A stretch of 64,000 nucleotides of DNA from Pneumocystis sp. 'macacae' (lineage: Eukaryota; Ascomycota; Pneumocystomycetes; Pneumocystales; Pneumocystaceae): contig CM030735.1 in assembly GCA_018127085.1 (NCBI GenBank), positions 248,001 through 312,000 of the forward strand, given 5' to 3'. Under the pieces are notes generated by a model. It did no database searches and was not told where the DNA came from. It worked only from the letters and a program-made list of their open reading frames with translations. Shown one piece after another: positions 29,218 to 47,164 of this stretch. The position numbers were made by a program, and so were the translations under genes. Numbering within the stretch: the stretch's first letter is position 1; every line of letters starts with the position of its first letter.

Positions 29218-30837
29218 TTATGTTGCTATTTCAGGTATTGTTTCTTTTTTATCTCCTTGTTGACGACGAGCAATTGTTTGTGCCAAAACCTGAGTTCTAA
29301 AATTTAATCCTTTTGTACGTTCGATAACTTGTTGATATATAGGTTGAGAGATGTGATTCATAACAATAGTGCCCTTTAACATTAATATATAATTTATATA
29401 TCCAAAGAATATATTTACTTCTTTGAAATCTATTTTTGCATTTAAATCTACAAGATCATCATGAATAAATTTAACAATTTGATCATGCGAAAAATTCAAT
29501 CGTTTTGAAAGATCACTGTTTTTCAATATAAAAAATACAAAATATCATATACTTACTCAATATCAATACGTTGATAAATCTTACAATATGCCTCTGCCAT
29601 AAGATAGTGTGCAGAATCAACAAATTCAGAACATGTCCCTACTAAAAAGAAATCATTCTTTAATACTTCTTCTGCTTCTTTAAGAAAATTTTGAGCATCT
29701 TCAAAATCAAACTGAATATACAAAACTTTAATGAATTGTATAACAGGATCTGTATATTCATATAACTCTTGGTCAATTACTTTTATTAATTCTTTCATAC
29801 GACGTTGATAATGCATTGCATTTCGTACTTGTGACCGCGTTGTAATAACAGCAACAGTCAAATACCTCAAAATCCATGGACATGATGTTTGAATTGTATT
29901 CATGTATGACGGAGAAAAGAATAGTTCACAGAGTGCTATTTTTCCTGTTTCGTGGTTAAAAAACGGGAAAAGAGACCAATGAATTAGCCACGTCCGATGT
30001 TTAAGCTGAAAAATTGGACTGGAAAAGTTCTAAATATAAAACTATTAAATACTGAATTATCCTTCTTAAACAAAAACCTTTGAATCGATAATATCTTTTA
30101 ATTTATTTACTTCTTCTAAAGCACGTTCCCAATTAACTGTTAAAATTTCAGATGCTAATTTTCCCCACGTTGCAGAGACATTTAACTCATTATCTATAGA
30201 CTAAAAATACGTTAACTTTCATAATTTTTAAAAAACAAATATTACTAGGGCTCTAAAATGGTAGAGAAGATCTACTGCACTTGCATAATTACCAGAATTA
30301 TATTGAAACTTTCCAAATTTATACAAAGAATTAATCATTTCAACAGTAAGCTATCCCATTGCGTTAGAATTTCATAATATTTTAATTAGAAAAATAAAAA
30401 TACATACCCCATGTGAATCTTTCAAATATTGTAAATTTTGTGCTTTATCTTGTTTTAACGCAACAATTACCTCAGGATTATCAAGTACTTTCAAAACCTT
30501 CTGACTTTCAGTATTTAGTAGGTCAAACATTTCTGTTTCTTCTTCTCTTTTTTTATTAAATTCTATGCAACTTTTGAACAAAGGATCTATAAGGCTCATT
30601 TCTTGTGATAAACTTATAATATAATCGGTCATATAAGTTTCAACTAACAAGTCATATTTTGCTTGAAGCATAACCTTTTTCTCATATATATTTTTTTGCT
30701 GTAAAAATTCCAAGAGAGGAAAAATTAAATGTTTATCAAGATACGGAAGCATACATGGAACAAGATCATATTGAAAAGAACCTATTAAAATTAATATATA
30801 AAAAAAAGAACTAACTAAAAATAGAACCTGAAGACAT
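29218..30837 (-). CDS. translation initiation factor eIF3 subunit e (Int6)
   Basis: A PCI-domain subunit of eIF3. Exon 1 (ATG 30835-30837) gives MSSG, then after a 45-nt intron [20 protein letters not shown] and [18 protein letters not shown], the conserved N-terminus of Int6. Later exons carry [21 protein letters not shown] helices (about 30240-30350), [24 protein letters not shown] sequence, and [20 protein letters not shown]. The PCI/winged-helix end is [20 protein letters not shown] followed by [20 protein letters not shown]. About 440 residues in all. Budding yeast lacks this subunit; fission yeast has it. Stop at 29218-29220. Confidence 0.93.
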
Positions 30838-31128
30838 AATAGGTGCTATTTTTTTCTATTTTAGAGCTTATATTAGATGAAACATCGAGATTTTAAAACT
30901 TCGCTTAAAATTTTAAATTTCGATTTTTAATATTAATTCATATAAATTTTAAAATGAAACATTTAATTACTTAATAAATAAAAATTCATTTTCTTACACA
31001 AAAAGAGGTGAAATTTTACATAAATTTTTCTAGAAAGACAAAATCTTTTTTTGAAAAAATCAATATTTTATAGTATTTTTTCAAAAAAATATAATTAATA
31101 AGCTTATTTTGTGATAGAAATAAATAAA

Positions 31129-31466
31129 ATGTTTCTTAAAAATACTCGACTATTTTCTTATTCTACATATTGCCGGAGCTATATTGTTAGAAGGACACGG
31201 TTCGGAAGCCTTCCTGTTTATCTGGATATCAAAGGTGGTGGGACTAAATTTCAAACAATCATTCGAAGAGTAGAAGGAAATGTTTATGTAAAATAAATGG
31301 GGTTTATTCAATTATCTTAATGTTTCAGGAATTATGTAAAAAACTTGAAAAAGATCTTAATCTAAAAGAAAAAGAAGCATTCGTTAACCATTTAACAAAA
31401 CATATAATCATAAAAGGTTCAAAAGTAAATCAAGTGAAAAATATACTCTCCAAAGATGGGTTTTGA
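31129..31466 (+). CDS. IMG2: mitochondrial large-subunit ribosomal protein mL49 (Img2)
   Basis: A mitoribosomal protein, about 99 residues, two exons. The ATG at 31129 gives MFLKNTRLFSYSTY, an import-like presequence, followed by RSYIVRRTRFGSLPVYLDIK and GGGTKFQTIIRRVEGNVY, the core motif of the Img2/MRPL49 family. A 41-nt intron leads to ELCKKLEKDLNLKEKEAFVN and the KGSKVNQVKNILSKDGF tail. The reading frame extends upstream without an ATG, so 31129 is the natural start. It converges on SWI1 with about 110 bp between stops. Confidence 0.87.
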
Positions 31467-31575
31467 CTTCCAGTATGTACGAAAATATGTTCCAATGATG
31501 ATCCCAAAGATAAATGATATTATATACAACTCAATTTATATAATTCTGAAATATGAGAAAACATAACAAAATATA

Positions 31576-34302
31576 TTATAATATTTCCATAACATTATCC
31601 TCTTCAACTAAAGACCATAAATTTTTTATAACCATGCCATCCATATGCGGTGTGAGAAGGCTTCCTAAAAGCTGTTCTTTTTTTGATGTTGTAAAAAATA
31701 CACGATACATTTCATCGAGAGGTTTCTCTTTTTTAGCTTTTTTAATTAAAATATGTAAAATATTCATTATGCGTCGAGCAAACCGAGAAAATGGATTTGA
31801 TTCTATATTATAAAATTGATGGGGTGACTGACCTCCTCCAATAGAACTAAGTAGACAAGCCAACCTTATAAGATTATTAAAAAAACTATCATCAGCAAAT
31901 AGCAAAGATCTAGCAAGACTGATTCCTTTTGGGAAAATGCTAACAATTGTTTCAGCAGCAAGTGTACAATGTTCAAGTAGAGCAAGTCGCATTTCACATG
32001 TATGAATCGGATGAGCTAGATCAGACAAAGGTATTGGTGATATACAAAGTAAAAGTGCTCGAATAAAAATGTTATCTCTAAGACATTGCTTAGAAGATAT
32101 TGAAATCATAACTTTTGTAAAAATATGTCTATTTGGAAAACTTCTTGCAAATAGTTTTGCAAGAGTATCTACTGCTGCTGGAAGGTATGGATGTAATGTC
32201 GGATTGTAAGATGTGAATAGAATTTTATTTGGATTCGACGAAATATTTGAATAAGGAGAAAATGCAATGATTAAAGAAATTATCGCTCTAGCAGTGGAAA
32301 CGTTTTCTATAAGAATACTCTGAGAAATATTCGAAAGAAGAATAATTAAATCTTTCGCTAAGTCTAATCGTAAACGGTATGATATTTCTGGAATGTCAGT
32401 TTTTGATATCATTATTATTAAATGTTCTATCAAAATAAGTAGTGAAATGTTTTTTGCCATAAAGTCTTGATTTTCTTCGGTAAAAGATAAATTTCTTAAA
32501 ATGGTTGCAATACATAAAATCTTTTCAGCTGATTTAATTTTGTTATAACCCAGACTCCCTGGTCGATAATTAACAATTAAATTTTCTATCTCATCATAAC
32601 ATAAATTCATCATTTGCTCATAAGATAATACAGACATAGTTTCATCCATTACCCTTATATCCTCAATTAATAAACTATACTCATCATCTGCCATCTCTAT
32701 TATACAATCCAATAACTCTCCACATTCTGCAAGTGGCAAACCCCATCTTTTATCTCCTGTAATAATTGTAAAAACATCAAGTGCTCTATTTACTTCTGAA
32801 TGCAATCTTGATTTAATACTCATTATTAAAGCATAAATATTAACAGTACCCAATTCATGTAATCTAGGTGGTTTACATTTAAGACCTTCTAAATCTAAGC
32901 TCATTTTTGTTATTAGTTCCATATCAAAACCACCATACGTTTCAACAACTCGTTTCTTTGGCTTATATATCTGCGTAGAAGATATTTTCGATGATGTATT
33001 TCTTGTTGATTGAGAATTATCACCACTAACCAAAGCTGTTGATTGCAAGGCAGGTTTCAACTGTATTGGATGCTCTTGAGAATGGAAAGATACTTTATTT
33101 GCTGCATTATAAATCATATTTTTTTGTAAATCATTTTGTTCTTGTATAAACCCACGCTTGACTTTATCAGAAGGTGGCTGTTGTACTTGTGCCTGTTGTT
33201 GCATCAGCAGTTGCTGATTATATGTCCATGCTTCTTCGTACGGTGCAAGATATGTTTCATAGCATTCTGCTAATTGCTGAATACCACTCGGTACCAAATT
33301 AATACCAAGAGCCTGAGCAATACTCGGCCACGCATTAGTTTGTATAACTTTATACTTTCCACCTAGACGCATCACGTGAATATACAATGTTGTTAAATTC
33401 ACCTGCTGTTCGCCAATATACGGAATTGCTGTTATTGGAGTGCCTCTTTTGCTCATAAACTCCATTAAGGATGACATAAAACCATCCGAAACATCTTGTT
33501 TTGCTAATGTCGATGGCATTGTCAATGTAGTAGAAGCAGATGAACGTGTAGATGGGACTACTTTCTGAAAATATCCTATACCTGTATAAAAAGGTAACCC
33601 CGGATGTGGTTGAGAAGAAAGTTGTGGTGAAATAGCAGCAACAGTGTTTGAAGATGGTAGGAATGAAGATGGGATTCCTGTACTTGCAGATGCGTTAATT
33701 GGTCCATTAATTGCAGTACTAATTGACGGATTAATTGGTCCATTGATTGCAGTACTAATTGATGGATTAATTGGTCCATTGATTGCAGTACTAATTGATG
33801 GATTAATTGGTCCATTGATTGCAGTACTAATTGATGGATTAATTGGTCCATTAATTGCAGTACTAATTGATGGATTAATTGGTCCATTAATTGAAGTACT
33901 AATTGATGGATTAATTGGTGCTGTTGTTTGAGGACCTGTTTGAGAGTTCATTTGATTATTAATTGATGCATATGGTACACCAGATGCACCTGCTAAAGTA
34001 TGTGTACCATATCCATAGATAAGGCCTGGTGTATACATCGATTTTCCGGTTCTTTGTCCCGAAGCACTAACATCCAATGATGCTGCAGATGTATATACTG
34101 GATAAACGGACTCTGAAAACCCCATGAGATCTTGTCTTTGTGTATATATTGGAACTGTATGTATTGTATGTGTCCCTGATTGTACTGCTTGCTGATGTTG
34201 TATAAGTTGTTGCTGAGTAGGTTGCCATTCATAAAGAGGTTGCATCGCCCACGGAAAATATGTAGACTCTGTTTGTTTTAAAAAGTTTTCCTGAGCTTTC
34301 AT
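31576..34302 (-). CDS. SWI1: SWI/SNF complex subunit Swi1 (ARID protein)
   Basis: A DNA-binding subunit of the SWI/SNF remodeller. A single 908-codon exon, unusual in this intron-rich setting. The first third is Gln/Thr/Ser/Pro-rich, with a tandem array of a 12-residue unit (INPSISTAINGP; about six copies). The ARID domain follows: FMSKRGTPITAIPYIGEQQV, LYIHVMRLGGKYKVIQTNAW and IAQALGINLVPSGIQQLAEC, then YETYLAPYEEAW. The C-terminal half is an armadillo-like helical region (KIKSAEKILCIATILRNLSF, YHPYLPAAVDTLAKLFAR-like), typical of Swi1/ARID1. The ATG at 34302 is preceded by an in-frame stop, so the start is reasonable unless a short upstream exon exists. Stop at 31576-31578. Confidence 0.92.
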   Translation of the reverse strand: MKAQENFLKQTESTYFPWAMQPLYEWQPTQQQLIQHQQAVQSGTHTIHTVPIYTQRQDLMGFSESVYPVYTSAASLDVSASGQRTGKSMYTPGLIYGYGTHTLAGASGVPYASINNQMNSQTGPQTTAPINPSISTSINGPINPSISTAINGPINPSISTAINGPINPSISTAINGPINPSISTAINGPINPSISTAINGPINASASTGIPSSFLPSSNTVAAISPQLSSQPHPGLPFYTGIGYFQKVVPSTRSSASTTLTMPSTLAKQDVSDGFMSSLMEFMSKRGTPITAIPYIGEQQVNLTTLYIHVMRLGGKYKVIQTNAWPSIAQALGINLVPSGIQQLAECYETYLAPYEEAWTYNQQLLMQQQAQVQQPPSDKVKRGFIQEQNDLQKNMIYNAANKVSFHSQEHPIQLKPALQSTALVSGDNSQSTRNTSSKISSTQIYKPKKRVVETYGGFDMELITKMSLDLEGLKCKPPRLHELGTVNIYALIMSIKSRLHSEVNRALDVFTIITGDKRWGLPLAECGELLDCIIEMADDEYSLLIEDIRVMDETMSVLSYEQMMNLCYDEIENLIVNYRPGSLGYNKIKSAEKILCIATILRNLSFTEENQDFMAKNISLLILIEHLIIMISKTDIPEISYRLRLDLAKDLIILLSNISQSILIENVSTARAIISLIIAFSPYSNISSNPNKILFTSYNPTLHPYLPAAVDTLAKLFARSFPNRHIFTKVMISISSKQCLRDNIFIRALLLCISPIPLSDLAHPIHTCEMRLALLEHCTLAAETIVSIFPKGISLARSLLFADDSFFNNLIRLACLLSSIGGGQSPHQFYNIESNPFSRFARRIMNILHILIKKAKKEKPLDEMYRVFFTTSKKEQLLGSLLTPHMDGMVIKNLWSLVEEDNVMEIL
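33695..33916. repeat. 36-bp coding minisatellite within SWI1
   Basis: About six direct copies of a 36-bp unit encode INPSISTAINGP on the minus strand. The three middle copies look identical in DNA. The outer ones differ by one to three bases (GAC/GAT, CAT TAA/CAT TGA, GCA/GAA). A degenerate seventh unit (INASASTGIPSS) follows. The unit is a multiple of three, so copy-number change would keep the SWI1 frame. Confidence 0.95.
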
Positions 34303-35704
34303 CCAGAGACGCTTCTTCCATCAAATATACTCAATAGGACTTGACTGATAAGGCGTATCGAATACAGATGCGGTAGCCGTACTAGTGATAAATAATCATG
34401 ATGTGTTATGTGAATCTGTAAGACGATCAGCATATGAATGAACGTTTCCTGTTTGACAGAGAAGGTAACGCTGCCGTACACTTTAGTATAAATAGAAAAA
34501 AGAACTTTTTCTATATGCACTTATTAGTTAAATAACGTCCGTTAGTTTATCCGTTTTTTTCCAAGTTGAAATTTAGTTATTAGGTGTACGAAAGCTTAAG
34601 AAAAAAGCATAGTGAATATAATCTAAATATATATACATATACATATATTTAGTGTTTATGTGATGCAAATAACTTAATAAGTGTAATTTAGTGCATTAAT
34701 TTTAGAATATAGCTTCAAGTCTCGAATATAGAGTACAAATATATAACGTATATACAAGTATGAAGCATATAGTACAAAATAGTACTTATATTAGTGAATG
34801 TGTTGATCTTGTATTATTATTATACAACCAAATTTATTTATTTACTCAAAGCAACAATGCACATATATATATTTTAATATATATCATGTATTTCAATAAT
34901 TTAATCAAATGTTTCAAAATTTATGATTCGCTTGCGGTGCATATATTTTGTTTAAGAATATATATATAACCGGATTTTGAAGATTGAATACTAAAGTATT
35001 GATTAGACAATAATATCTTAACTGTATATATACAATAAAATAAAATCGAATGCATTGTTGATTAGTTATATATATTAAAACAGTAATCTCATCAATAGAC
35101 AGTAATTTGCATATATTGATGTATATATTAAGTTAAATACATTTTATATATTTTGATTATTTCCTAATTACATAGAACCACAACGTATTTAAAAACATAC
35201 TTATTTTTCAAATTATATTTTCCCATCTATTAATCTACTTGAAACAACGTTATCGTTTTGTCCTATAAATTATATGTAAAAGCATATGTGTTATATATGC
35301 ATTATATGTATTATACGCTTTAGGTTCTATGTTAGAATTTTTAGTTTTTTAAACGAATCTTTCATTTAAAAACATATATTTATTTAATATAGTTTGTTTT
35401 TTATATTTAAATAGACGTTTGCAATGTAACAAAATATTATGATGTATATTAGTAAATTTCTATAATGCATATTTATCACTCATATGCATAACGCTAGGAA
35501 TTATATATACTATATACCATGCATTATTAAAGATATACATATTATTTATACATGTTTTCTAATTTTTATTACATCGTTTTTTTGTTTAGTTTACCTAATA
35601 CATATTAGCGTTGATTCAGGCAACACTTATCAAAAATACTTAAAAATAAAATGATTGAAATATTATAAAGAATTAAATAAGTCAACTATTTCTTGCATAT
35701 AAAA
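34303..35704. other. long divergent intergenic region, SWI1 / YEN1-like
   Basis: About 1.4 kb. The first 200 bp next to SWI1 are moderately GC-rich and have a short open frame on the minus strand, so they could be a 5' leader or an unseen upstream exon. The rest is rich in TATATA, ATGCAT and TGTATA palindromic words, without recognisable RNA boxes or coding exons. It is large enough to hold regulatory sites for both genes. Confidence 0.5.
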
Positions 35705-37575
35705 ATGGGAATCCCTGGTATATGGACATTTTTTAAAAACTCTAAAGAGAGGATTTGTAATAACTTGAAAGCTACAGTACAGTATCACTATTAACAAGAA
35801 TAGCATTAGCAAAACTTGCATCAGAGGCCTATTTGTCCGATCGCCGGTCACCTAGAGGGTTCAGAGTCGGTATTGATGCATCTATATGGCTTTATCAAGT
35901 CCGTGCAGGACAGGGCGGACAAAATCCTGAACTGAGGACATTGTATTTTCGTCTTTGTCGACTTCGTTATCTTGGCATTCTGCCTATTTTTGTGCTAGAT
36001 GGGGCACACAGACCCTTTTTCAAAAGGAAAAAGAAGATACGGAAAACAGCATTTCAAATGGCAAACATGATTCGTCTAATCAAACTATTCGGCTTTCCTG
36101 TTTGGTATGCACCAGGAGAAGCTGAAGCAGAATGCGCACTGCTCAAAAAAAAATCAATCATCGATGCTGTTATGTCCGAAGACGCAGATTGTTTTATATT
36201 CGGTTCCGATTTCGTAATCAAAGATTGGGGAGGCGATGATGAGCTCAAGACAAACACCTCCACACATGTTTCTCTCTACACAATGGATAAAATCGCAAAA
36301 AATACACATATTACTCAGGCCGGCATCCTCCTTATAGCCCTGATGTCCTCGGGCGACTACGACTCAATCGGCATCCCTAGCTGCGGGATCAAGACTGCCA
36401 TCGATGCTGCCAAGGCTGGCTTTGGCGACTCCCTCCTTGCCCTCATAAATTCCAAATCCGACCTCACCGATTGGAAAAACTCTCTTGAATACTCCCTCCG
36501 CACCAATGCATATGGCCACTTCTCCTCCAAACACCCTTCTCTGCGCCTCCCTAAAGACTTCCCAAACCTCGATGTGGTTAAGTTCTATATCGATCCTGTA
36601 ACAAGCTCTGACTCAGTGCTCAAAAAAAAAGCTGCTCATCTCGCCTGGAAATGGCCCATCGACGTGCATGCTCTTTACCAGTTTGTTCTTCACCACTTCT
36701 CCTGGTCTGGACTCCCAGGGATCAACCGCTTTATACATTCTCTTGCTCCCTGCTATCTGGTTTCTCTACTAAAGCACCACACACTCGCTGCACCAGGCTC
36801 TCTAGGCACCTCTCGGGACACAGTGAAGTCACGTGAAGGACAGTCCTTACAGAACACACCATCCACGAGGAACATAGTTCGTATGCCGCATAGACAGAAC
36901 ACGCTAAGCAAGCCGTGCACGTATAGCATGCAAAATATCTGAACACTGATAACACCACATAGGCAGAACACCTCTTTAGGATGCAATACACAGTGCTCTT
37001 CGGACACATCATCCAAGACAGGCACACCCACCCACAGGAACACATGTATTCAAGCACCGGGTGTCCTAAACATTTCACGGGACAACCCCCCACCGAGCAC
37101 CCTCTACTCAGTATACTTTACCAACGTCAAGGAGTATCTGCGCAGCATCAAGGCTCCCCTCCCATCTGCACCGGACATAGAGGTCGGTGCATTCAGGACC
37201 CATGTTTCCACCGACTATTCCCCCGAGTTCCGTGTTTCTTTCTGCCCCTTCAAGCTTATCGGTCTTACGCTGGACGGACCCGTCGTCAGCACACTCAGCG
37301 CCGCCAACAGTGCCTCTTTGCCCGACGAACCCAACAGCCCTGACGATCCCGACAGTCTTCTCGACAAGATCGACTATGCCTCGAGGACTGCTGTCTGGGT
37401 TCTCGAGCCCTATCTCGGTGCCCTTGCACGCCACTGTCCCCGTCGCCCTGCACTCTCCCGTGCACCCCGTGCCCGCCCATCTCCAGCCCTTGGCCACGAC
37501 CAGGCCGGCGCCATTGAGGCGTATCTGTGTACCACCCGCCCAGCCCGCCCACCCTGTCTCGCCTGTCCCCTCTGA
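35705..37575 (+). CDS. XPG/FEN1-family Holliday-junction resolvase, Yen1/GEN1-like
   Basis: A structure-selective nuclease that cuts Holliday junctions and flaps. Exon 1 starts MGIPGIWTFFKNSKERI. A 47-nt intron (GTAATA...AATAG) joins it to SLAKLASEAYLSDRRSPRGF and RVGIDASIWLYQVRAGQGG, the XPG-N domain. XPG-I follows with FVLDGAHRPFFKRKKK, APGEAEAECALLKKK and SEDADCFIFGSDF; all the acidic metal ligands expected of the family are present. Then come GDYDSIGIPSCGIKTAIDAA and the chromodomain-like stretch ending FIHSLAPCYLVSLL. An in-frame TGA (36940-36942) is removed by a 42-nt intron (36930-36971). Downstream, GAFRTHVSTDYSPEFRVSFC and ASRTAVWVLEPYL match the Yen1 C-terminal region. The 5' third is moderate in GC and the rest is very GC-rich and C-biased. 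The linker join between 36,830 and 37,130 is the least certain part. Confidence 0.82.
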
Positions 37576-39890
37576 TCCAGCGGCAGCAGTGCTGCCCGCG
37601 TGCCATTGTGTGCTGCACACAACTGCATCCGCCTCAGCCAGTGCCGCACGCTGGCCGGCGTGTCTCGCGCTGCCCATCCTCCCCTCTTGTGGTGCCTCGC
37701 TGTCCGAGCCGAATGCTTGTCCAGTGCCCCGTGCGTAGGCTGTCCGCTCACCACCCGCATTCCCGTTTCCAGCTGCAGCATAGCCGCATCAATCAAAGAA
37801 CACAGCCCGGCACACGCAGCTTGGATTTGCCTCAGAGGGACTGTGTGTTGAGCATGAGCAACAATGACTACCATGTAAGTAACAGGACAAGCATGCTGAG
37901 CAAGGAAGCAGTGCCCGCCGGAGTGCGGAGTACAGCAGACGGAGCACCACGCCTGCCAACAGTGCTGACATGAGTAGAAGGCGGAAGACGCAGGTATAGA
38001 CACAGCACACGAGGCACAGCAGGCAGCACAGCAGGAGCCGTCAGACGGCAGTGCAAAGGCGCTGCCGTGCACATATGTAGACGAGAAAAAGGACGGTGCA
38101 GACGGCACCGGCGGGACAGAGGGCGACATCTTTTCGCAGACGTATGATATCCGGGCGGGGAACCCGTTTCCAGAAGACCCAGATGCACCAGTGGAAACGC
38201 AGCAGCTGACAGTGCGGGCGATCCTGGTGGGGAGCATGCTGGGGGCAGTAGTGACTGCGTCAAACATCTACTTGGGGCTGAAGACGGGGTTTACGTTTGG
38301 GGCACAGCTGTTTGGAGCAATTTTTGGGTTTGCAATCCTGCAGTTTGTGTCGCGGACGCTGCCGACATGGTTTGGAGGGGGCTACTTTGGGCCAAAGGAG
38401 AACTGCACAGTGCAGACGGCAGCGACGGCAGCGGGGGGGATGGCAAGCATGTTTGTGTCGTCGATCCCGGCGATGTACACGCTGAGTCTGCTGGGGAAGA
38501 GCCCGGAGGCAGACTTTTGGCGGCTGATCAGCTTTGCAGCGGTCAGTGCGTACTACGGGATCTTTTTTGTGATTCCGCTGCGGAAGTTCTATATTCTGTA
38601 TCAGCGGCTGGTGTTTCCGACGTCGTCTGCGTGTGCACTGACGATCCGGTCGCTGCACTCGGGGACAATCGCACACTCGGTGATCCGCAAGAAGACATGG
38701 TCTCTGGGGCTGTCGTTTCTCTTTGCAATCCTGATGCGGGTGTTCTCGGACTATGCACCGGGGATCCTGTGGAACTGGCACATTTTTTGGTGGATGTATG
38801 AGCGGGGGTGGAAGGGAGCAATTGTAATGGAGAACTGGGGATGGTGGATCCAGGCGACGCCGGCGTTTCTGGGTGTCGGGTTTTTCACGGGGATGAACGC
38901 GGCGTACAGCTTTTTCCTGGGATCAGTTATTGCATGGGGAGTTCTGGGGCCGATTATTGCAAGCACGGGGGTTGCGCCGCAGCATGTGGTGCTGTCGCCG
39001 GAGCACCCGGACTGGCGGGGATACCACTCGATGAATCTGCGGTCGCGGCTGAGCCCGAAGGGGTTCGATCCGATCCGGAATCCGTCGCCCCGGTACTGGT
39101 TGATGTGGCCGGGGGTGATGCTTATGCTGTGTGCGTCGTTTGCAGAAATCTTTATGAGTGGAGGGGTAATTTGGCGGGGAATCAAGCAGATGTCCCAGTC
39201 GGTCTACTACAAGGTGCGGAGGCGAGAGTCGGAGGTGTTCAAGGATGCGATTGAGGACCCGGCGCCGCCAGAGACACAGATCCCGATATGGCAGTGGCTG
39301 CCGCTGCTGTTTCTTTCGGTGGTGTTTACGTGCGTGGTCTTGTACTTCCAGTACGGGATTGGGGTTGGGCTGTCGCTGCTGGCGATTCTGCTGGGGTTCG
39401 CATTTTCGTTTATTGGGGCACAGTCAACTGGGGCGACAGACGTAAACCCGCTGTCGACGTGTGCAAAAAGCTCGCAGCTGATTTTTGGTGCGATTTCGAG
39501 TGCTCAGAAGATGGACGAGGTTGTGGCCCAGCGGCTCAACCTTATAGCAGGGTCGGTGGCAGCGTCGTCGGCGTCACAGTCGGTGGACATGATTGGGGAC
39601 CTGAAGACAGGGCATCTTCTCGGGGCAAAGCCGAGGGTTCAGTTTTATGCACAGATAGTCGGGTCGTTTTTCTCGGTCTGGCTGAGCGTGGTGCTTTATA
39701 TCCTGTTTAGCAAGGCGTATCCGTGCTTTACGTCGCAATTCATGGCAAACTATCCGGAAACAGAGACGTGTGTCTTTGGGGCGCCGGCGGTGGCAGCATG
39801 GAGGGCGATTGCGAGTGCAATGACTAACCCAGAGCTGCCGGTGCCGCCGTCGTCGGCGTATACGTCGCTTGGGCTTGGAATTTTGTCGGT
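36300..39890. other. GC-rich compositional island
   Basis: Sixty-base lines counted by hand give about 60% GC at 36361, 70% at 37501, 58% at 38221 and 65% at 39061. They give about 42-48% at 35881 and 36121 and 35% at 39901 and 40021; the neighbouring genes are visibly far more AT-rich. The left shoulder lies inside the YEN1-like gene and the right edge inside the OPT gene. On the + strand the left part is C-rich (for example 24 C to 5 G at 36481; 32 to 12 at 37441) and the right part G-rich (24 G to 12 C at 38341), with the switch near 37,800. Confidence 0.92.
37576..37969. other. GC-rich spacer between YEN1-like and OPT genes
   Basis: About 390 bp. It must hold the 3' end of the resolvase gene and the promoter of the transporter. 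Many overlapping open frames occur on both strands, as expected where stop codons are rare, but none resembles a known protein. ATG 37854, followed by a perfect GTAAGT donor at 37875, might be an upstream first exon of the transporter. Confidence 0.5.
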
Positions 39891-40209
39891 GATTATGGTT
39901 GTTTATAAGCATTCTTATTGTCCGCAAAAGTACAGGGCTTATATTCCTAATTTCAATGCGATTGGTCTTGGGTTCGTTGTGCCACAGACGTATTATGCAA
40001 CGGCTATGATTATTGGGGCGATTATAGCACATTTCTGGAAAAAATACAAGCCAGTGTCTTATGATATTTATGCACTCGCGATCGCTACGGGTTTCGCAGC
40101 GGGTGAGGGTATGGGGGGTGTTGTTAACGCTGTTTTGCAGGTTTCAGGGTTGCCTGGTCATAAATATGGTACTCGGATTGGATGTTCTTACGATACATGG
40201 TGTGGTTGA
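37970..40209 (+). CDS. OPT-superfamily oligopeptide/metal-chelate transporter (YGL114W-like)
   Basis: A polytopic proton-coupled transporter. The conserved entry reads GNPFPEDPDAPVETQQLTVR, then AILVGSMLGAVVTASNIYLG and LKTGFTFGAQLFGAIFGFAI, a signature of the YGL114W/TIGR00733-type OPT clade. More than a dozen hydrophobic segments follow. Conserved polar motifs include GGGYFGPKENCTVQTAATAA, STGATDVNPLSTCAKSSQLI, HLLGAKPRVQFYAQIVGSFF and ATGFAAGEGMGGVVNAVLQV. The C-terminus is GTRIGCSYDTWCG. About 730 residues. The start is uncertain: ATG 37970 gives MSRRRKTQ and a 41-nt intron (37994-38034) that splices in frame. ATG 37854 is an alternative. The body is one long exon. Codons end mostly in G or C until about 39,890, after which they become AT-ending like the rest of the window. 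Confidence 0.88.
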
Positions 40210-40547
40210 GTCTTCGTATACCTGAATGTGTTTGTTATTGCGTGTATAAAGCGGAAGCTGTCAGGATGTTTTATCTATGGGTTGCTAATACTTGGCTTTT
40301 ATAAAATATTTAATGATATATATTTATGCACAGCATTGTATATACATATATATATTTCTTATAGCATTAGATTCATGTATGTTTGGATTCTTTGAGATAT
40401 AATGTATTCTTATGTTAATGAAATCTGATTTTTTTTCGCTCTTCGTTATATATACGTTCGAAGTTCGTTTCGAAGAGCCAACAATATTTGGTTTCAGGGC
40501 AGAGGAAGTCTTAAGCCGTCTTTGTAATCTTTAGGACGGGGAAGGAT
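40210..40547. other. intergenic region upstream of SPB4
   Basis: About 340 bp. Composition falls back to AT-rich. Two nearby TTCGAA words (about 40455-40475) form a short inverted arrangement that may be a promoter element. No gene is seen. Confidence 0.45.
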
Positions 40548-42542
40548 ATGTCTGGTTTCTCTTCTCTTTTATGGGAAGATATTGGGGTTTCTTTGACTCC
40601 CTGGATGTTTGTTTTTTTGCTTAAAAGTCAATTATGTTAATATTTTCTTGGATAGAAGAAAGGCCATAGATACTATGGGATTCCAAAAAACAACACCGGT
40701 TCAAGCAAGCACTATTCCCCTCTTTATGAAGAATAAGGATGTCGTTGTTGAGGTATACATTTGTTGTATTTTTTTTGCTTATTTTTAGGCGATGACAGGA
40801 TCAGGAAAAACCTTGGCTTTTTTGGTGCCTGTACTAGAAAAATTAATTAGAAGAGAAGAAATATTAACTAGACATCATATAGGATCCCTGATTATTTTGC
40901 CTACAAGGTTTGCTGCAGCATGTGTTGGGTTATTTGTTTAAAATTAGGCAGAGAATTGGCGACCCAAATTTACCATGTCTATGAAACTATTATAGGAATG
41001 TCAGAAGAAACAGAATTAAATTTAAAGGCACAGCTTGTTATCGGAGGAGTAATGACTATACAACATGATATATCTGAATTTGATAAAATGTCTCCTTCAA
41101 TTATTATCGGAACACCTGGCCGTATAAATGATCTTCTTTTATCATCCATTGTTAAAACTAAAGAATTAGAGATACTTGTTATGGATGAAGCGGATCGGTT
41201 ATTAGATATGGGCTTTTTGCCTGTAGTAGAATCTATTATTAGAAAGTTGCCTAAACAAAGACGAACGGGTCTTTTTAGTGCTACTATGACTGATGCAGTC
41301 GATAAATTGGTTAAAACGGGATTAAGAAATCCGGTTAAAATAGTAGTTAGGGTAGGGAACCAGAAAAATGATCAAGAGGACAGGTGTACTCCTTCATGGT
41401 TGTTTTTTTCCTTTTGTACGACATTACGTTTAATTCTTTTAGTTTACAGATAGGATATATTGTTATGAAATCGGAAGAAAAATATTTACAGCTAATTAGG
41501 CTTTTGAATTATTCACTTGATAAAGAAAAAATGAAAAAGTTTATTGTTTATTTTCTCTCATGCGTTTGTGTTGATTATTTTTCTCTGATTTTTTCAAAGA
41601 TTCCATATTTAAAGAAGACATTTAAAATATTTTCTCTCCATGGTCGGCAAAGTTCTTCTTTAAGAATTAAGAATTATAAGAATTTTTTTAATATGTTATC
41701 TGAAACGCCAACAGTATTATTTACTACAGATTTAGCTGCAAGGGGTCTTGATGTTCCCAATGTTGATATGGTTATTCAAATGGATCCTCCACTAGATCCG
41801 AAAGTGTTTTCGCATCGCTGCGGAAGGGCAGGAAGAGCTGGTAGACCTGGTAAGGCTATTGTTATGTTGAATAAAGGGAGAGAAGAAGATTATATACACT
41901 TGTTGAAAGTAAGAAAAATACCTCTTGAATCTTTGAAAAAAATTGGGAAAAATGGTGATATTATAAAAAATGACGAAGATGAATCTAAAGAAGAGATATT
42001 TTCACTAGTTAGTGAAATACGGAACATTGTTAAGAAGGATAGAGATTTGTATGAAAAGGTATATTTGTATTTGTTTTTTTAGTGGAAAGATTATAAATAT
42101 ACTTAGGGTCTAAAGGCATTTGTATCTTATGTAAGAGCATATTCAAAGCATCAGGCACATTTCATTTTTCGTGTTAAGGATCTTGATTTTTCTGGAATAG
42201 CATATTCTTTTGGGTTACTTCATCTTCCTAAAATGCCAGAATTAAAGAATCTAGCATTAGATTTTGAAGAAGAAATTGTAGATGTAAGATATCTATAATT
42301 TTTTTTCCTATATTAATTTGTTTTAGAAAGATAAATTGGCTTATGCTAATAAAGAAAAAGAAGTCTCTAGACGAAAAAAAAATGAAAAGAAATTAATGAA
42401 TGAGAAAAAAAATATAATTTTAAAGAAAAAGTCAATTTCATGGTCAAAAAATATAAAATTAAAGGAAAAGCGAAAAATTCGCCGGAATAAACATAAATTT
42501 AAAAAAGAAAAAATTTCTTTGAAAAAAGACTTGGTATGTTAA
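40548..42542 (+). CDS. SPB4: DEAD-box RNA helicase Spb4 (DDX55)
   Basis: A nucleolar ATP-dependent helicase required for 60S subunit assembly. Exon 1 gives [20 protein letters not shown] short intron joins it to [20 protein letters not shown], the Q motif region. Then come [20 protein letters not shown] (Walker A), [23 protein letters not shown], the DEAD box in [24 protein letters not shown] (SAT), [20 protein letters not shown] and [20 protein letters not shown]. The C-terminal region ([34 protein letters not shown], then a Lys-rich tail) is typical of Spb4. There are several introns. Some keep the frame open, so the retained-intron reading near 41384-41470 should be ignored. Confidence 0.92.
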
Positions 42543-42738
42543 AAAATATAGAAACAAAGAGGTATATATATTTAATGTATTGTAATATAAGAATATTTTT
42601 AATGTCTTTCTATTTTCCACTGTAATATGTATTAACGTTTCAAAATTCTATGTGCATTATACTTTTAGTATTTTATGGTTTCATCAATATTTTCACTTTT
42701 AACATTATTAAACGTTGAATATATCGATTAGAAATACT

Positions 42739-43974
42739 ATGAATATTGCGAATAATTATAATGATTCTACCTACTTTTCATTTGAGCCATTATTAACACT
42801 TCTTTCTTCAGAATTTCCGTCTAAAAAAATCCAATATAATCCTTTTGTTGTATCATATTTATCAGAATTACTGGAGTCTTCTGTTTCTGAATTATCTGAA
42901 AAATCTAATGAATTAGTTCTTGAAAATCAAAGGATTATATCTGATTTAGTTGAAATCACACAAAAAGAACATAGTAATCTTGTTACAATTATAAATTATG
43001 GGAATCGTTTCTTTAAATCCTTTAATACTCTCAATGAATCTGTTAATAAAATTCAATCAACAATTATTTCTATTAATGAAAAAATTTCAAATTTTAGAGC
43101 TTCGAAAGATTTATTGAATGAAACTTTCAACCAAACTCGTTTATTGTATCAATATCAAGAATACATTTTAAACATACTTGAGATTCCATCTTTAATAAAG
43201 ACTTTTACAAAAAACGATTGTTATTCAGAAGCAATAAGTTTAATATTTTATGCAAGACAATTAGGATCTAAGTATTCTCAAATTGGGATAATTCAAAACT
43301 TAGTAGAACAAACTAATCATATGTCAGAATATATGCAAAAACAATTATTATCCCTTTTAAGAGGGCCTATAAAATTAACAGAAGCAACTAAGGTAAAAAT
43401 TAAACTAATTTTGGTTTTTTAAAGTTAAATAGGATAGGTTATTGGTTATCTTCATAGAACAAATGATTTTTCGGAGACTGAATTATGTTATACATTTTTA
43501 CTTTGTCGTTGGAATTATATAGAAAAACTTATTTCTAAGTTGATTCCCCCTAAACAAGGAGAAGATTCCGGAAAATACCTTAAAGAGTATATAGAAATAT
43601 TCAGAGAACATAGTTTCAGTATATTTTCATATTATACTTTAATATTTTTAGAAGAATCTGCATTTCAGTTAGAGAAAAATTTAAAAAACATTCTAATAAT
43701 GAATGAAAATGAGTCAAATGAGAAAGTATTAAAGAAAAAATTACTTTCAAACTTCGCATTATTTATAGTGTCTGAGATAAAAAATACATTAATAACATAT
43801 GTTCCTTTCATTTTTGAAGAAAAAACAAAAACATTAATACTTAATCGAATTTTCAATTGTGGACAAAGTTTAGGAGGAATTGGTGTTGATTTTAGTTTAG
43901 CATTAGTTAGTGTTTTTGGTGATGAATGGGTGGATGCTATGAAAAACGATCAAAAAATAATAAAATCAGATTAA
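42739..43974 (+). CDS. COG8: conserved oligomeric Golgi complex subunit 8 (Cog8/Dor1)
   Basis: A COG lobe B subunit. Two exons, about 395 residues; family members are often 400-600. The ATG at 42739 gives MNIANNYNDSTYFSFEPLLT. The Dor1 domain follows: YNPFVVSYLSELLESSVSEL, a coiled coil with NRFFKSFNTLNESVNKIQST, then TRLLYQYQEYILNILEIPSL, CYSEAISLIFYARQLGSKYS and KQLLSLLRGPIKLTEATK. A 47-nt intron leads to VIGYLHRTNDFSETELCYTF. These are the best-conserved Cog8 segments. The upstream open frame without ATG is leader sequence. Confidence 0.9.
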
Positions 43975-44035
43975 TATAAAAACTCAAACATTTATATAAT
44001 TTTTTTGTCCATTAATATTTTAAGATATATAATTT

Positions 44036-45030
44036 TTACATTGTAATTTCATTCATTACTACTGTGTCAGTTAAACCAAGTTTTTTAATGCACGAAAAGT
44101 ATCTTGTATGATCTTCTTTACGTAAGTATTTTAGTATTTTTTGGCGTTTATGTACTAAATGTCTTAATGCTCTGAAAGTATTTTTATCTTTATGATGAAA
44201 AGAAAGATGAAAATTCAGATAATGTATACGAACTGTAAATATTGCAGCTAAAATTATATTATATAGAAGAATTTATCAATAGTATAAATTATACCTTGTA
44301 CTTCTGGGGATCCGGTATCTGATTCATGTTGTTTAAATTGTTGAATAGCCATAAAGATATTTTGGAGCTGTATTGCTTTGTTGTTACTATTTTTTAAACT
44401 CATAATTCGTTTTATAACCTCCGCTTTTTTATCTTCTTGCTTGTATATTTTTTGAATTTTATAAATAGATGCTAGTTTAATAATATGATTTTTTGTATTT
44501 TCGCCCTTATTTGAATCAAATGCTTCCTGTATTTTATCATTCTTAGAAATAGTTTCCAATAAAGATTGGATATCAGCTTCCTCACTAATATTAATATATT
44601 TAGACATTTTTTCTTTAAGCTCTGTTAGATTATTCTCATTTATCATTGATGACGAAAGCCCAACACGATAAAGGCTTGCTTCTTTTGCGGATTTGAGAAT
44701 TGTGTTTAATTCTTCATTAGAAAAAAAAAAATTTGCATAATTTATGAAAGGACTTGTTTCTGTAAAAACGTCTTTTGGATATAAAATGGAACGGGTAAAT
44801 TCTGTAGAAAATGCAATGACTGGATCACACACTTTAAGGGATCGCTGTTCCTTCAATTTCCTTTGTTTTTCAATATTTTTTTTTTTACGTTGAATTGATA
44901 TAAGAGATTGTTTCCATCTTGTACTTGTGTTATGAAACTCTGAAAATTTAAACAAAATATATTGTACTTTTTGATAAAGAATTTTTTTACATAAATATTT
45001 ATTTACTCCTTTACGCAATATTCTTAGCAT
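44036..45030 (-). CDS. mitochondrial small-subunit ribosomal protein uS15m (MRPS28)
   Basis: About 316 residues. The N-terminus (MLRILRKGVNKYLCKKILYQ) is a good import signal, followed by a long fungal-specific region. The uS15 domain begins with LQNIFMAIQQFKQHESDTGS. The intron after PEVQ is followed by AAIFTVRIHYLNFHLSFHHK, then DKNTFRALRHLVHKRQKILK and YLRKEDHTRYFSCIKKLGL. The HxxDxGSxExQ and LxxLxxxRxxLLxYLxxxD patterns define uS15. Its start is 125 bp from the divergent NOP58, and its stop is about 60 bp from that of COG8. Confidence 0.88.
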
Positions 45031-45155
45031 ATCTTTACTTTTCTAAAGTAGTTTTTTCAAACTGATCCACTTTTTTAGATGTCGAACAATTTGAAAAAAA
45101 AAAACGAAACTTAAATTAGAGGGTTTTACTAGAATTCCTTAGGGAAAATAAGAGA
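45031..45155. promoter_or_regulatory. divergent promoter region, uS15m / NOP58
   Basis: 125 bp between two divergent start codons. Both products serve translation, one in mitochondria and one through rRNA modification. No specific element can be named. Confidence 0.35.
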
Positions 45156-46897
45156 ATGCTTGGTAAGATAAGTTGTCCTACTTAGGTGTACTTAAAACAT
45201 TTAACTTTTTATAGTTTTAACTGAAACAAGTGCTGGATATGCGATTTTTAAGTTTTCTGCTAAAGAAAAGGTTTTGAAGAAACCAGAAACTTTGTATAAA
45301 AGTCTCGATACTGTAGATAAGGCGTCAAGCTTGTATGTTCCGAAAACCTATACAAAGATTTTCAAACATTTTGCTGAAATGGCCTTTTGGCTTAATTTAA
45401 TAGACTTAAATTGAAAATATTTTCGAAATTTGAAGATACAATAGACGCTCTTAATAATGTATCTGCTGTTATTGAAGGAAAAGTTACTGGGAAGCTTGCT
45501 TCCCTACTTTCAGGATTTTCTGGAAAGAAGGATTCTCTTATTGTTTCGGATCCAAAGTAACTTTTATAATAATATTTAGGTATTTTGTTCAATTTTCATC
45601 TCTAGGCTTGCAAATTCAATCAAAAAGATCCCTGGACTTGATCTTTCTATTATTTCAGATCCTACTGTACAAGAACTTTATCGTGTTATTAGAGAGCATA
45701 TAACAACTCTTATTTCTGGATTAACTCCAACAGATATGTCTAGTATGGTGCTAGGATTAAGTCATAGTCTTTCACGACATAAACTCAAATTTTCTCCAGA
45801 CAAAGTCGATACGATGATTATTCAGGCTATTGTATTACTAGATGATTTAGATAAAGAACTTAATATATATGTGATGCGTATAAAAGAATGGTATGGATGG
45901 CATTTTCCAGAGATGTCACGAGTAGTTTCTGATAATATGGCTTATGTAAGAGTAATAAAGGCTATGGGATTCAGGACTATGGCTGATAAAACGGATTTTT
46001 CTGAAATTCTTCCTGAAGATATTGAAATGTCTTTGAAAGCTATTGCTAAAGTATCTATGGGAACAGAAATAACAAATGATGATTTAGAAAATATTAATTT
46101 ATTAGCAGATCAAATTTTGTCTCTCTCAGATTATCGTATCCAGCTTTCAGAGTACTTACGTAATCGTATGCAAGCTATTGCACCCAATCTTACTGCATTG
46201 GTTGGAGAACTTGTAGGAGCACGTCTTATAGCTCATGCTGGCTCTTTGTTAAATCTTGCAAAGCAACCTGCTTCAACTATTCAAATTTTAGGAGCGGAAA
46301 AGGCTCTTTTTCGAGCTCTTAAAACAAAGCATGACACACCAAAATATGGTTTAATATATCATGCTAGTTTAATAGGTCAAGCTAGTGCAAAAAATAAAGG
46401 TAAAATAGCAAGAATCTTAGCAACGAAAGCGGCAATCAGTTTAAGAGTTGATGCAATGGGAGAAAAGGATATAGGGACAATTGGAATAGAAAATAAATCA
46501 AAAGTAGAGGCAAGATTGCGGATGTTAGAGGGTGGAAAAGTAGAAAAGTCATCTATACCAAGTGAGAAAATATGGAAAAAATATCAAATTCAAGCGTAAA
46601 TGATTTGATGTTTGATTAAATAGAATGTTAAATTGTAATAGGGCACCAAAATACAATATAGATACCGATATTATAATAGATATGGGTTCGCAAAAGGAAT
46701 TTGGAAAAAATGAAAAAGAATTAATTTCGGAAACTGAAATATCTAAAAATTTTGAGATAGAAACGCATAAAATAGAAAAAAAAGATCAGAACAAAAAAAA
46801 GAAAAGGAAGATAAATGAAACTGAACAAAATGATAATCTCTCTAAATCACATGACAAATCTAAACGTAAGAAAATCAAAGATAAATCTCTTGTATGA
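45156..46897 (+). CDS. NOP58: C/D box snoRNP core protein Nop58
   Basis: A core scaffold of box C/D snoRNPs, which 2'-O-methylate rRNA in the nucleolus. Exon 1 holds only ATGCTTG. The intron then joins it to TTTTAACTG to give [21 protein letters not shown] later 71-nt intron precedes [20 protein letters not shown]. The NOP domain is intact: [40 protein letters not shown] and [20 protein letters not shown], then [20 protein letters not shown] and [21 protein letters not shown] final intron links KKYQIQA to APKYNIDTD and a Lys-rich tail ([16 protein letters not shown]). The window also holds a C/D snoRNA in eIF3k, the kind of RNA this protein binds. Confidence 0.95.
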
Positions 46898-47063: not shown

Positions 47064-47164
47064 GGTACTATGGCCGAGTTGGTCTAAGGCGTGGGACTCA
47101 AGTTCTAGCTTATAGAGTTTATCTCATCTCGAAAGAGGCCTGGGTTCGAATCCCAGTGGTACCA
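47064..47164 (+). tRNA. tRNA-Leu (anticodon CAA), with intron
   Basis: A class II tRNA. The acceptor GGTACTA pairs with TGGTACC (one G-T) and leaves discriminator A 47164. The D arm is GGCCGAGTTGGTCTAAGGC. The anticodon stem TGGGA pairs with TCTCA, the anticodon CAA is at 47099-47101, and a short intron of about 18-19 nt starts after the following G. A long variable arm follows (CTCGAAAGAG). The T arm is CTGGGTTCGAATCCCAG. CCA is not encoded. The anticodon-proximal ACTC can pair with GAGT in the intron, the usual tRNA-Leu(CAA) precursor fold. It lies about 170 bp downstream of NOP58. Confidence 0.95.

What the first reader, a model, noticed from the sequence alone, without database searches (positions are those of the whole stretch)
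36300..39890. GC-rich island whose edges fall inside two genes
Within a window that is strongly AT-rich elsewhere, about 3.6 kb reaches roughly 55-70% GC (lines counted by hand: 60% at 36361, 70% at 37501, 65% at 39061, against 42% at 36121 and 35% at 39901). The left shoulder is inside the YEN1-like nuclease, after its conserved N-domain. The right edge is near codon 640 of the OPT transporter, whose last 100 or so codons return to AT-ending. Both proteins remain conserved across the edges. An inserted foreign block or contamination should break at gene ends or disrupt the proteins. A local process acting on DNA, such as GC-biased gene conversion at a long-lived recombination hotspot, fits better.
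Basis: partly seen in the sequence, partly recalled or inferred. Interest (0 to 1): 0.85.

Follow-up and report, generated by a model that had tools for sequence, protein, structure and literature searches.

The report
GC islands with mirror-image strand bias
In the AT-rich genome of a macaque lung fungus, short GC-rich islands cut across gene boundaries and carry extra C on their left half and extra G on their right half, a pattern best explained by repeated DNA break repair at long-lived recombination hotspots rather than by foreign DNA.

Summary
The island is real: GC is at least 45% over window 36,192-40,053, against a sampled median of 28%. The genome is Pneumocystis sp. 'macacae'. It is not foreign DNA: both proteins are vertically inherited, and YEN1 and OPT carry consecutive locus tags in three other Pneumocystis species. 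It is one of many. None of 142 AT-rich control windows reaches this contrast. At four-fold degenerate sites, left halves are 57% C and 9% G, right halves 63% G and 11% C, whatever the gene orientation (16 of 17 segments). An 11-bp minisatellite marks many islands: 8 of 8 further sites tested lie beside GC-rich DNA, though only 5 of those 8 clearly showed the expected skew order. Best explanation: long-lived double-strand-break hotspots with GC-biased, strand-asymmetric repair. Symmetric gene conversion alone would not give the strand contrast. Insertion, codon selection, centromeres and transcription of the known genes fit poorly. No recombination, read or population data were available, so the hotspot step is inferred.

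The parts
36192..40053 (.). GC island core (500-bp windows with GC of 0.45 or more); C16:284192-288053
   Evidence: profile
35705..36191 (.). left shoulder, GC about 0.40-0.43, inside YEN1
   Evidence: GC3 0.32-0.34 in YEN1 codons 1-150
36192..37814 (.). C-rich left half (GC skew -0.27 on the + strand)
37815..40053 (.). G-rich right half (GC skew +0.21 on the + strand); the flip near 37815 lies 39 bases before the OPT start codon
35705..37575 (+). YEN1/GEN1-like nuclease gene, predicted exons 35705-35756, 35804-36920, 36963-37575 (593 aa)
   Evidence: Pfam XPG_N and XPG_I; splice model; relatives
37576..37853 (.). YEN1-OPT spacer, GC 0.637, holding the skew flip; probable OPT promoter (inference)
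37854..40209 (+). OPT oligopeptide transporter gene, predicted exons 37854-37874 and 37978-40209 (750 aa)
   Evidence: Pfam OPT; exon 2 start KAEDAG shared with P0001; no stops

Best explanation
The island is one of several tens of long-lived meiotic double-strand-break hotspots in P. macacae. Breaks form mostly near the island centre, usually between genes (here just upstream of OPT). Repair tracts reach about 2 kb to each side and over evolutionary time favour G:C over A:T. The favour is strand-asymmetric: on both sides G accumulates on the strand whose 5' end faces the break (the one resected and resynthesised) and C on the 3'-tail strand. Shown here: the GC rise, the mirror-image skew, its independence of gene orientation, its recurrence and the vertical inheritance of the two window genes. 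Inferred: that the process is Spo11-type break repair, that the centres are promoters, and that the asymmetry comes from mismatch choice or repair synthesis.
For: Five of 5 fully read islands on C16, C1 and C2 are C-rich left and G-rich right; midpoint-split contrasts +0.41 to +0.63 against a maximum of +0.36 in 142 overlapping AT-rich control windows; 0 of 2000 block shuffles reach it in each island. Four-fold sites follow side, not gene strand, in 16 of 17 segments. Cores of 3.7-5.7 kb are of the scale of conversion tracts (recalled). In 4 of 5 islands the flip lies between matched genes. Amino-acid replacements gain GC increasingly toward the centre in YEN1, C-type left and G-type right. 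A Spo11-type domain is encoded.
Against: No recombination, break or population data. Standard gene conversion has no strand preference, so an extra, unproven step is needed. DnaJ_C, at the far edge of island A, has the opposite bias. At two of eight probed minisatellite sites (C7, C10) the expected skew order was not seen. No Y-family polymerase domain was found, which removes one candidate for biased synthesis. OPT residues 681-750, outside the island, also gain GC against P. canis.
Confidence: 0.58

Rival explanations
1. Each island centre is a strong bidirectional promoter; divergent sense and antisense transcription over about 2 kb on each side leaves G on the non-template strand, with GC raised by some promoter-linked process.
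For: Flips lie between genes in 4 of 5 islands; the direction of skew is the one that outward transcription would give.
Against: Known genes pointing at the centre (YEN1, FCF2, TBP, actin, IleRS) have the opposite bias on their coding strand, so unseen antisense transcription would have to dominate. It does not by itself raise GC from 28% to 60% or more.
Confidence: 0.13
2. The islands are replication origins whose leading and lagging strands mutate differently.
For: Negative-to-positive GC skew along the + strand is the classical origin signature (recalled).
Against: The skew is confined to about 4-5 kb, and the flanks show no consistent sign, whereas forks travel much farther; a rise in GC is not expected at origins.
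Confidence: 0.08
3. Two separate processes coincide: ordinary symmetric gene conversion raises GC, and an unrelated strand-asymmetric mutation process near the same sites adds the skew.
For: On the right the T:C ratio also moves toward C (0.10:0.11, against about 0.5:0.1 in background genes), as symmetric conversion would do, beside the much larger G gain.
Against: Skew and GC rise share borders in the five islands read, which favours one process.
Confidence: 0.1
4. Selection on codons or expression made these genes GC-rich.
For: Some islands hold genes expected to be highly expressed: a histone pair, actin, a tRNA synthetase.
Against: Neighbouring genes prefer opposite third bases (FCF2 85% C, RFX BCD 88% G; YEN1 exon 3 54% C, OPT 68% G), and spacer and OPT intron are GC-rich too.
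Confidence: 0.02
5. The island is foreign DNA, contamination or an assembly chimera.
For: Sharp composition contrast. Reads were not available to me.
Against: Trees place both proteins in Pneumocystis at 100/100; consecutive locus tags in three species; edges inside conserved genes; the same build on three contigs. The species was assembled from Nanopore and Illumina reads (PMC7940399 section 6).
Confidence: 0.02
6. The islands are kinetochore-related sites.
For: PMC10327204 section 9 reports 4-6 Mis12 peaks per P. macacae chromosome that tend to occur in GC-rich regions.
Against: The same section says the extra peaks may be artefacts, and the mapped centromeres of P. murina and P. carinii are one per chromosome and on average 3.9% lower in GC. 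C16 has at least three islands. Kinetochore binding would not explain the composition.
Confidence: 0.03

Closest known systems
GC-biased gene conversion at meiotic recombination hotspots (general knowledge; introduced in PMC7403616 and PMC9001825, passages seen)
   Same: Local weak-to-strong shift at all kinds of sites, kilobase scale, independent of gene borders, changing proteins as well
   Different: Ordinary conversion is symmetric for G and C; here G and C are split between the two sides of a centre
GC-rich gene clusters of gerbils (PMC7403616, passages seen)
   Same: Extreme GC rise in local blocks, raised amino-acid change, explained by recombination; genes there are easily missed in assemblies
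   Different: In that paper 'GC skew' means GC bias; the passages I saw describe no strand contrast or mirror image
GC skew at CpG-island promoters (R-loops; recalled)
   Same: GC-rich DNA with strand bias around a start site
   Different: There the bias follows transcription of the gene; here it follows position relative to the island centre
Nucleotide skew around mouse meiotic hotspots (recalled, no paper read)
   Same: Purine/pyrimidine asymmetry that changes sign at the centre
   Different: As I recall it, weak and seen on averaging many sites; here each single island shows it
Pneumocystis centromeres (PMC10327204, sections 9 and 12 read)
   Same: Kilobase-scale regions spanning active genes
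   Different: Those are single per chromosome and GC-poorer; these are several per contig and GC-rich

Membership tests
GC-biased gene conversion hotspot | Weak-to-strong shift at silent and noncoding sites irrespective of gene function | tested here: met
   GC3 and noncoding GC; four-fold sites in five islands
GC-biased gene conversion hotspot | Kilobase scale, as conversion tracts | tested here: met
   cores of 3.7-5.7 kb
GC-biased gene conversion hotspot | Symmetric for G and C | tested here: not met
   left C 0.57 and G 0.09, right C 0.11 and G 0.63 at four-fold sites; hence filed as working like it, not as an ordinary member
GC-biased gene conversion hotspot | Raised recombination rate or breaks at the site | not testable with these tools
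   no crosses, population or break data
GC-biased gene conversion hotspot | Break-forming machinery present | tested here: met
   TP6A_N (Spo11-type) match over the cut-off on C12
Transcription-linked (R-loop) promoter skew | Skew follows the direction of transcription | tested here: not met
   5 inward-pointing genes are C-rich on the coding strand; antisense transcripts not testable
Replication origin skew | Skew extends along the replicated arms | tested here: not met
   confined to the islands; flanks without consistent sign
Replication origin skew | Replication starts at the flip | not testable with these tools
   no replication data
Pneumocystis centromere | One per chromosome and GC-poor | tested here: not met
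   three GC-rich islands on C16; definition from PMC10327204 section 9
Horizontally acquired or contaminant block | Proteins group with a distant donor | tested here: not met
   trees of 21 OPT and 14 YEN1 proteins

The most novel reading that the evidence does not exclude
Break repair at long-lived hotspots is strand-asymmetric in what it writes (G on the strand resynthesised outward from the break), so that base composition of a single genome shows the position and both arms of many old hotspots, in a fungus without reliable continuous culture. The window's hotspot would date from before the split from the closest relative sampled (P0001, perhaps P. jirovecii).
Probability: 0.42. Interest if true: 0.9.

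Novelty: new variant of a known kind. Interest (0 to 1): 0.78.

Why it matters
If true, hotspots could be mapped from one genome without crosses, hotspots could be shown to last very long in a fungus, and a strand-asymmetric bias of break repair that symmetric gene-conversion models leave out would become testable. It also warns that genes in such islands can be missed: the public YEN1 model stops in a predicted intron, and no P. macacae-named OPT protein was among the 120 listed hits.

Tried and rejected
Insertion or contamination was rejected by the trees and the locus-tag neighbours, without read data. Codon selection was rejected by opposite third-base choices in neighbouring genes. A centromere reading was rejected on GC and number. 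An RNA gene at the centre was looked for and not found: no tRNA in 30,000-46,000, and the one Rfam match in the window is a tRNA at 47,064-47,164, outside the island. Error-prone synthesis by a Y-family polymerase could give the right strand bias (recalled), but no such domain was found in six frames, introns unaccounted for. Cytosine deamination of the 3' tails would deplete C there, the opposite of what is seen. The repeat finder for dispersed repeats, the promoter and terminator scan, and structure prediction were not used.

My probe grid was imperfect: it missed an island on C7 near 120-121 kb that lay between probes. The first splice model of YEN1 intron 1 gave stops and was replaced.

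Full report
What is there. The window is C16:248,001-312,000 of an 8.27-Mb genome in 19 contigs; C16 has 345,501 bases. A public protein of Pneumocystis sp. 'macacae' (PMAC_001634, 396 aa), on a contig of exactly that length, matches YEN1 at 100% over 66% of my model. The GC island is confirmed at 36,192-40,053, with a shoulder from about 35,700.

Genes. YEN1 (XPG_N and XPG_I domains) has predicted exons 35,705-35,756, 35,804-36,920 and 36,963-37,575. The last exon holds a C-terminal part also seen in the relatives from five other Pneumocystis species and is absent from the public model, which stops in the predicted 42-base intron. OPT (PF03169) has predicted exons 37,854-37,874 and 37,978-40,209; the start of exon 2 (KAEDAG) is shared with relative P0001. 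The spacer is 278 bases.

Not foreign. In trees of 21 OPT proteins (20 relatives picked from 120 listed) and 14 YEN1 proteins (13 picked from 120) the window sequences fall in Pneumocystis clades with support 100/100. OPT and YEN1 bear consecutive locus tags in P. oryctolagi (PORY_001185/001186), P. canis (PCANB_001696/001697) and P. carinii (T552_03526/03525). The YEN1 branch of the window is long: 0.74, against 0.23 and 0.28 in P. oryctolagi and P. canis.

Not unique. In the first 264 kb (window and 20 tiles of C16) two more islands appeared on C16, at 120.3-125.2 kb (A) and 169.3-175.0 kb (B), with 300-bp GC up to 0.74. GC-rich stretches also lie in the first 20 kb of C16 and were not studied. 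Then 78 probes of 400 bases, 4.5 kb apart on C1, C2, C4 and C7, gave 2 with GC of 0.45 or more; both were read in full and are islands, C1:153.3-157.8 kb and C2:194.9-198.6 kb. Four further 10-kb tiles had none. The grid can miss islands: one on C7 was missed.

Mirror-image skew. All five fully read islands are C-rich in the left half and G-rich in the right half of the + strand. Split at the midpoint, without choosing the flip, right minus left is +0.41, +0.44, +0.57, +0.53 and +0.63. Among 142 overlapping 4.5-kb windows of the AT-rich sample (islands with margins and the first 20 kb of C16 left out) the range is -0.35 to +0.36. Shuffles of 30-base blocks within islands never reached the observed contrast, 0 of 2000 in each of five.

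Strand bias follows position, not genes. Seventeen coding segments in the islands were read at four-fold degenerate third positions. They were chosen from Pfam matches and, for one IleRS piece, from my reading of the translation; two squalene synthase pieces overlap by 73 bases in different frames. H3 and H4 are named from recalled sequence; Pfam says histone or histone-fold. Left: 495 sites, A 0.15, C 0.57, G 0.09, T 0.20. Right: 969 sites, A 0.17, C 0.11, G 0.63, T 0.10 on the + strand. Sixteen of 17 segments fit their side; the exception is DnaJ_C at the far right edge of island A. Genes pointing at the centre (YEN1, FCF2, TBP, actin, IleRS) are C-rich on their coding strand; genes pointing away (OPT, RFX, squalene synthase, CAC2, H3, H4, Mcp5) are G-rich. 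A process tied to DNA geometry explains this; codon preference or transcription of the known genes does not. On the right, C stays near its background share (0.11, against 0.05-0.12 in three background genes), so the gain is nearly all G. That is not ordinary gene conversion, although T falls relative to C as well.

Where the flip sits. It lies at window 37,815, between YEN1 and OPT. In the other islands it falls between the matched parts of FCF2 and RFX, of TBP and squalene synthase, and of the divergent H3 and H4 genes; in island B the genes next to the flip were not resolved. A place between genes suggests promoters, as for meiotic breaks in budding yeast (recalled).

Proteins pushed by the process. 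Against five relatives, replaced residues of the window's YEN1 gain codon-position-1/2 GC (expected from amino acids) of 0.05-0.13 per differing site in residues 1-183, 0.22-0.36 in 184-390 and 0.63-0.85 in exon 3, with C gain above G gain in exon 3 in 5 of 5. OPT residues 71-680 gain 0.13-0.39 against five relatives, G above C in 5 of 5; pairs among the other species give -0.17 to +0.10. Against P0001, an unnamed relative (91% over the search query, 88% in the full alignment), the net gain there is +2.0 over 58 differences, so P0001 has an equally GC-rich protein. P0001 may be P. jirovecii (inference); that split is put at about 62 million years (PMC7940399, passage seen). The picture is not perfect: residues 681-750, outside the island, gain 0.42 against P. 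canis but -0.07 to +0.15 against the other four, and in the first 70 residues P0001 exceeds the window by 0.52 per differing site.

A minisatellite marks islands. An 11-base unit, GCATACA plus four bases, forms short arrays in islands B, C1 and C2, not in the window island or island A. A 18-base word of it with up to three mismatches occurs 165 times in the genome (101 forward, 64 reverse; the word read backwards 0 and 2). The 100 listed places form 37 sites on 15 contigs when merged within 2 kb, 24 of them with two or more hits. I probed eight of the multi-hit sites outside the read islands, seven on both sides and C7 on the left only, where a grid probe lay to the right. Fourteen of 16 new probes have GC of 0.45 or more, and each site has at least one of 0.58 or more, against 2 of 78 grid probes. 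C7 was chosen because the grid probe beside it had GC 0.39. The skew order left minus, right plus held at C4, C5, C8, C15 and C9 (right probe GC only 0.39). C3 was uninformative (left probe outside the island). C10 (+0.02 then +0.32) and C7 (+0.20, -0.14, then +0.50 in the grid probe) did not show it clearly. So there are probably several tens of islands.

Mechanism. If breaks fall at the flip, resection leaves 3' tails that are the + strand on the left and the - strand on the right. Both are the C-rich strand; G is enriched on the strand that is removed and resynthesised. Two steps could do this: mismatch repair that depends on both mismatch and strand, or biased repair synthesis. A Spo11-type domain is encoded on C12, UDG-family matches lie at two places, some with stops inside the matched span, and no Y-family polymerase was found. 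This part is inference. PMC9001825 (passages seen) reports strand-biased mismatch resolution during break-coupled annealing in mouse cells, a precedent for strand dependence but not for this G preference.

Literature. PMC10327204 (abstract, sections 9 and 12, part 1 of section 33, passages) notes that P. macacae Mis12 peaks tend to occur in GC-rich regions. PMC7940399 was seen in passages and section 6, PMC7403616 in passages. I saw no description of such islands or of their skew in what I read or in the listings of ten searches: Pneumocystis with centromere, GC-rich plus recombination, oligopeptide transporter, biased gene conversion, macacae plus speciation, and GC rich regions; and GC skew, GC islands, strand asymmetry and purine skew with hotspots. 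The library holds open-licence papers only.

Noticed in passing
window 36963-37575: A conserved C-terminal exon of YEN1 is missing from the public P. macacae model PMAC_001634, which ends at a stop inside a predicted 42-base intron.
   Followed up: yes
window 37854-40209: No OPT protein named as P. macacae, P. jirovecii or P. murina was among the 120 listed hits; three unnamed Pneumocystis-clade proteins (P0001, P0004, P0006) may fill the gap. Genes in GC islands may be under-annotated.
   Followed up: partly
L019:3479-3541, L086:6616-6663, L087:6571-6603 and further sites on 15 contigs: A dispersed 11-bp minisatellite (GCATACA plus 4 bases) that lies in or beside GC islands at every one of 11 sites examined. 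Origin and role unknown.
   Followed up: partly
C16:1-20000 (L002, L003): The first 20 kb of the contig is also GC-richer than the rest (tile means 0.399 and 0.345), perhaps a subtelomere with surface-protein genes (inference).
   Followed up: no
whole genome G000: No Y-family DNA polymerase domain (PF00817) was found in six frames, while 11 of 14 control genomes have it; intron-split exons could hide one.
   Followed up: no
window 33576-33887: The ARID-domain gene on the - strand has a tandem repeat of about 11-12 residues (GPINPSISTAIN) in its N-terminal part, visible in the translation.
   Followed up: no
L014:4857-5298: DnaJ_C at the right edge of island A has C-rich third positions where G-rich ones were expected.
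   Followed up: no
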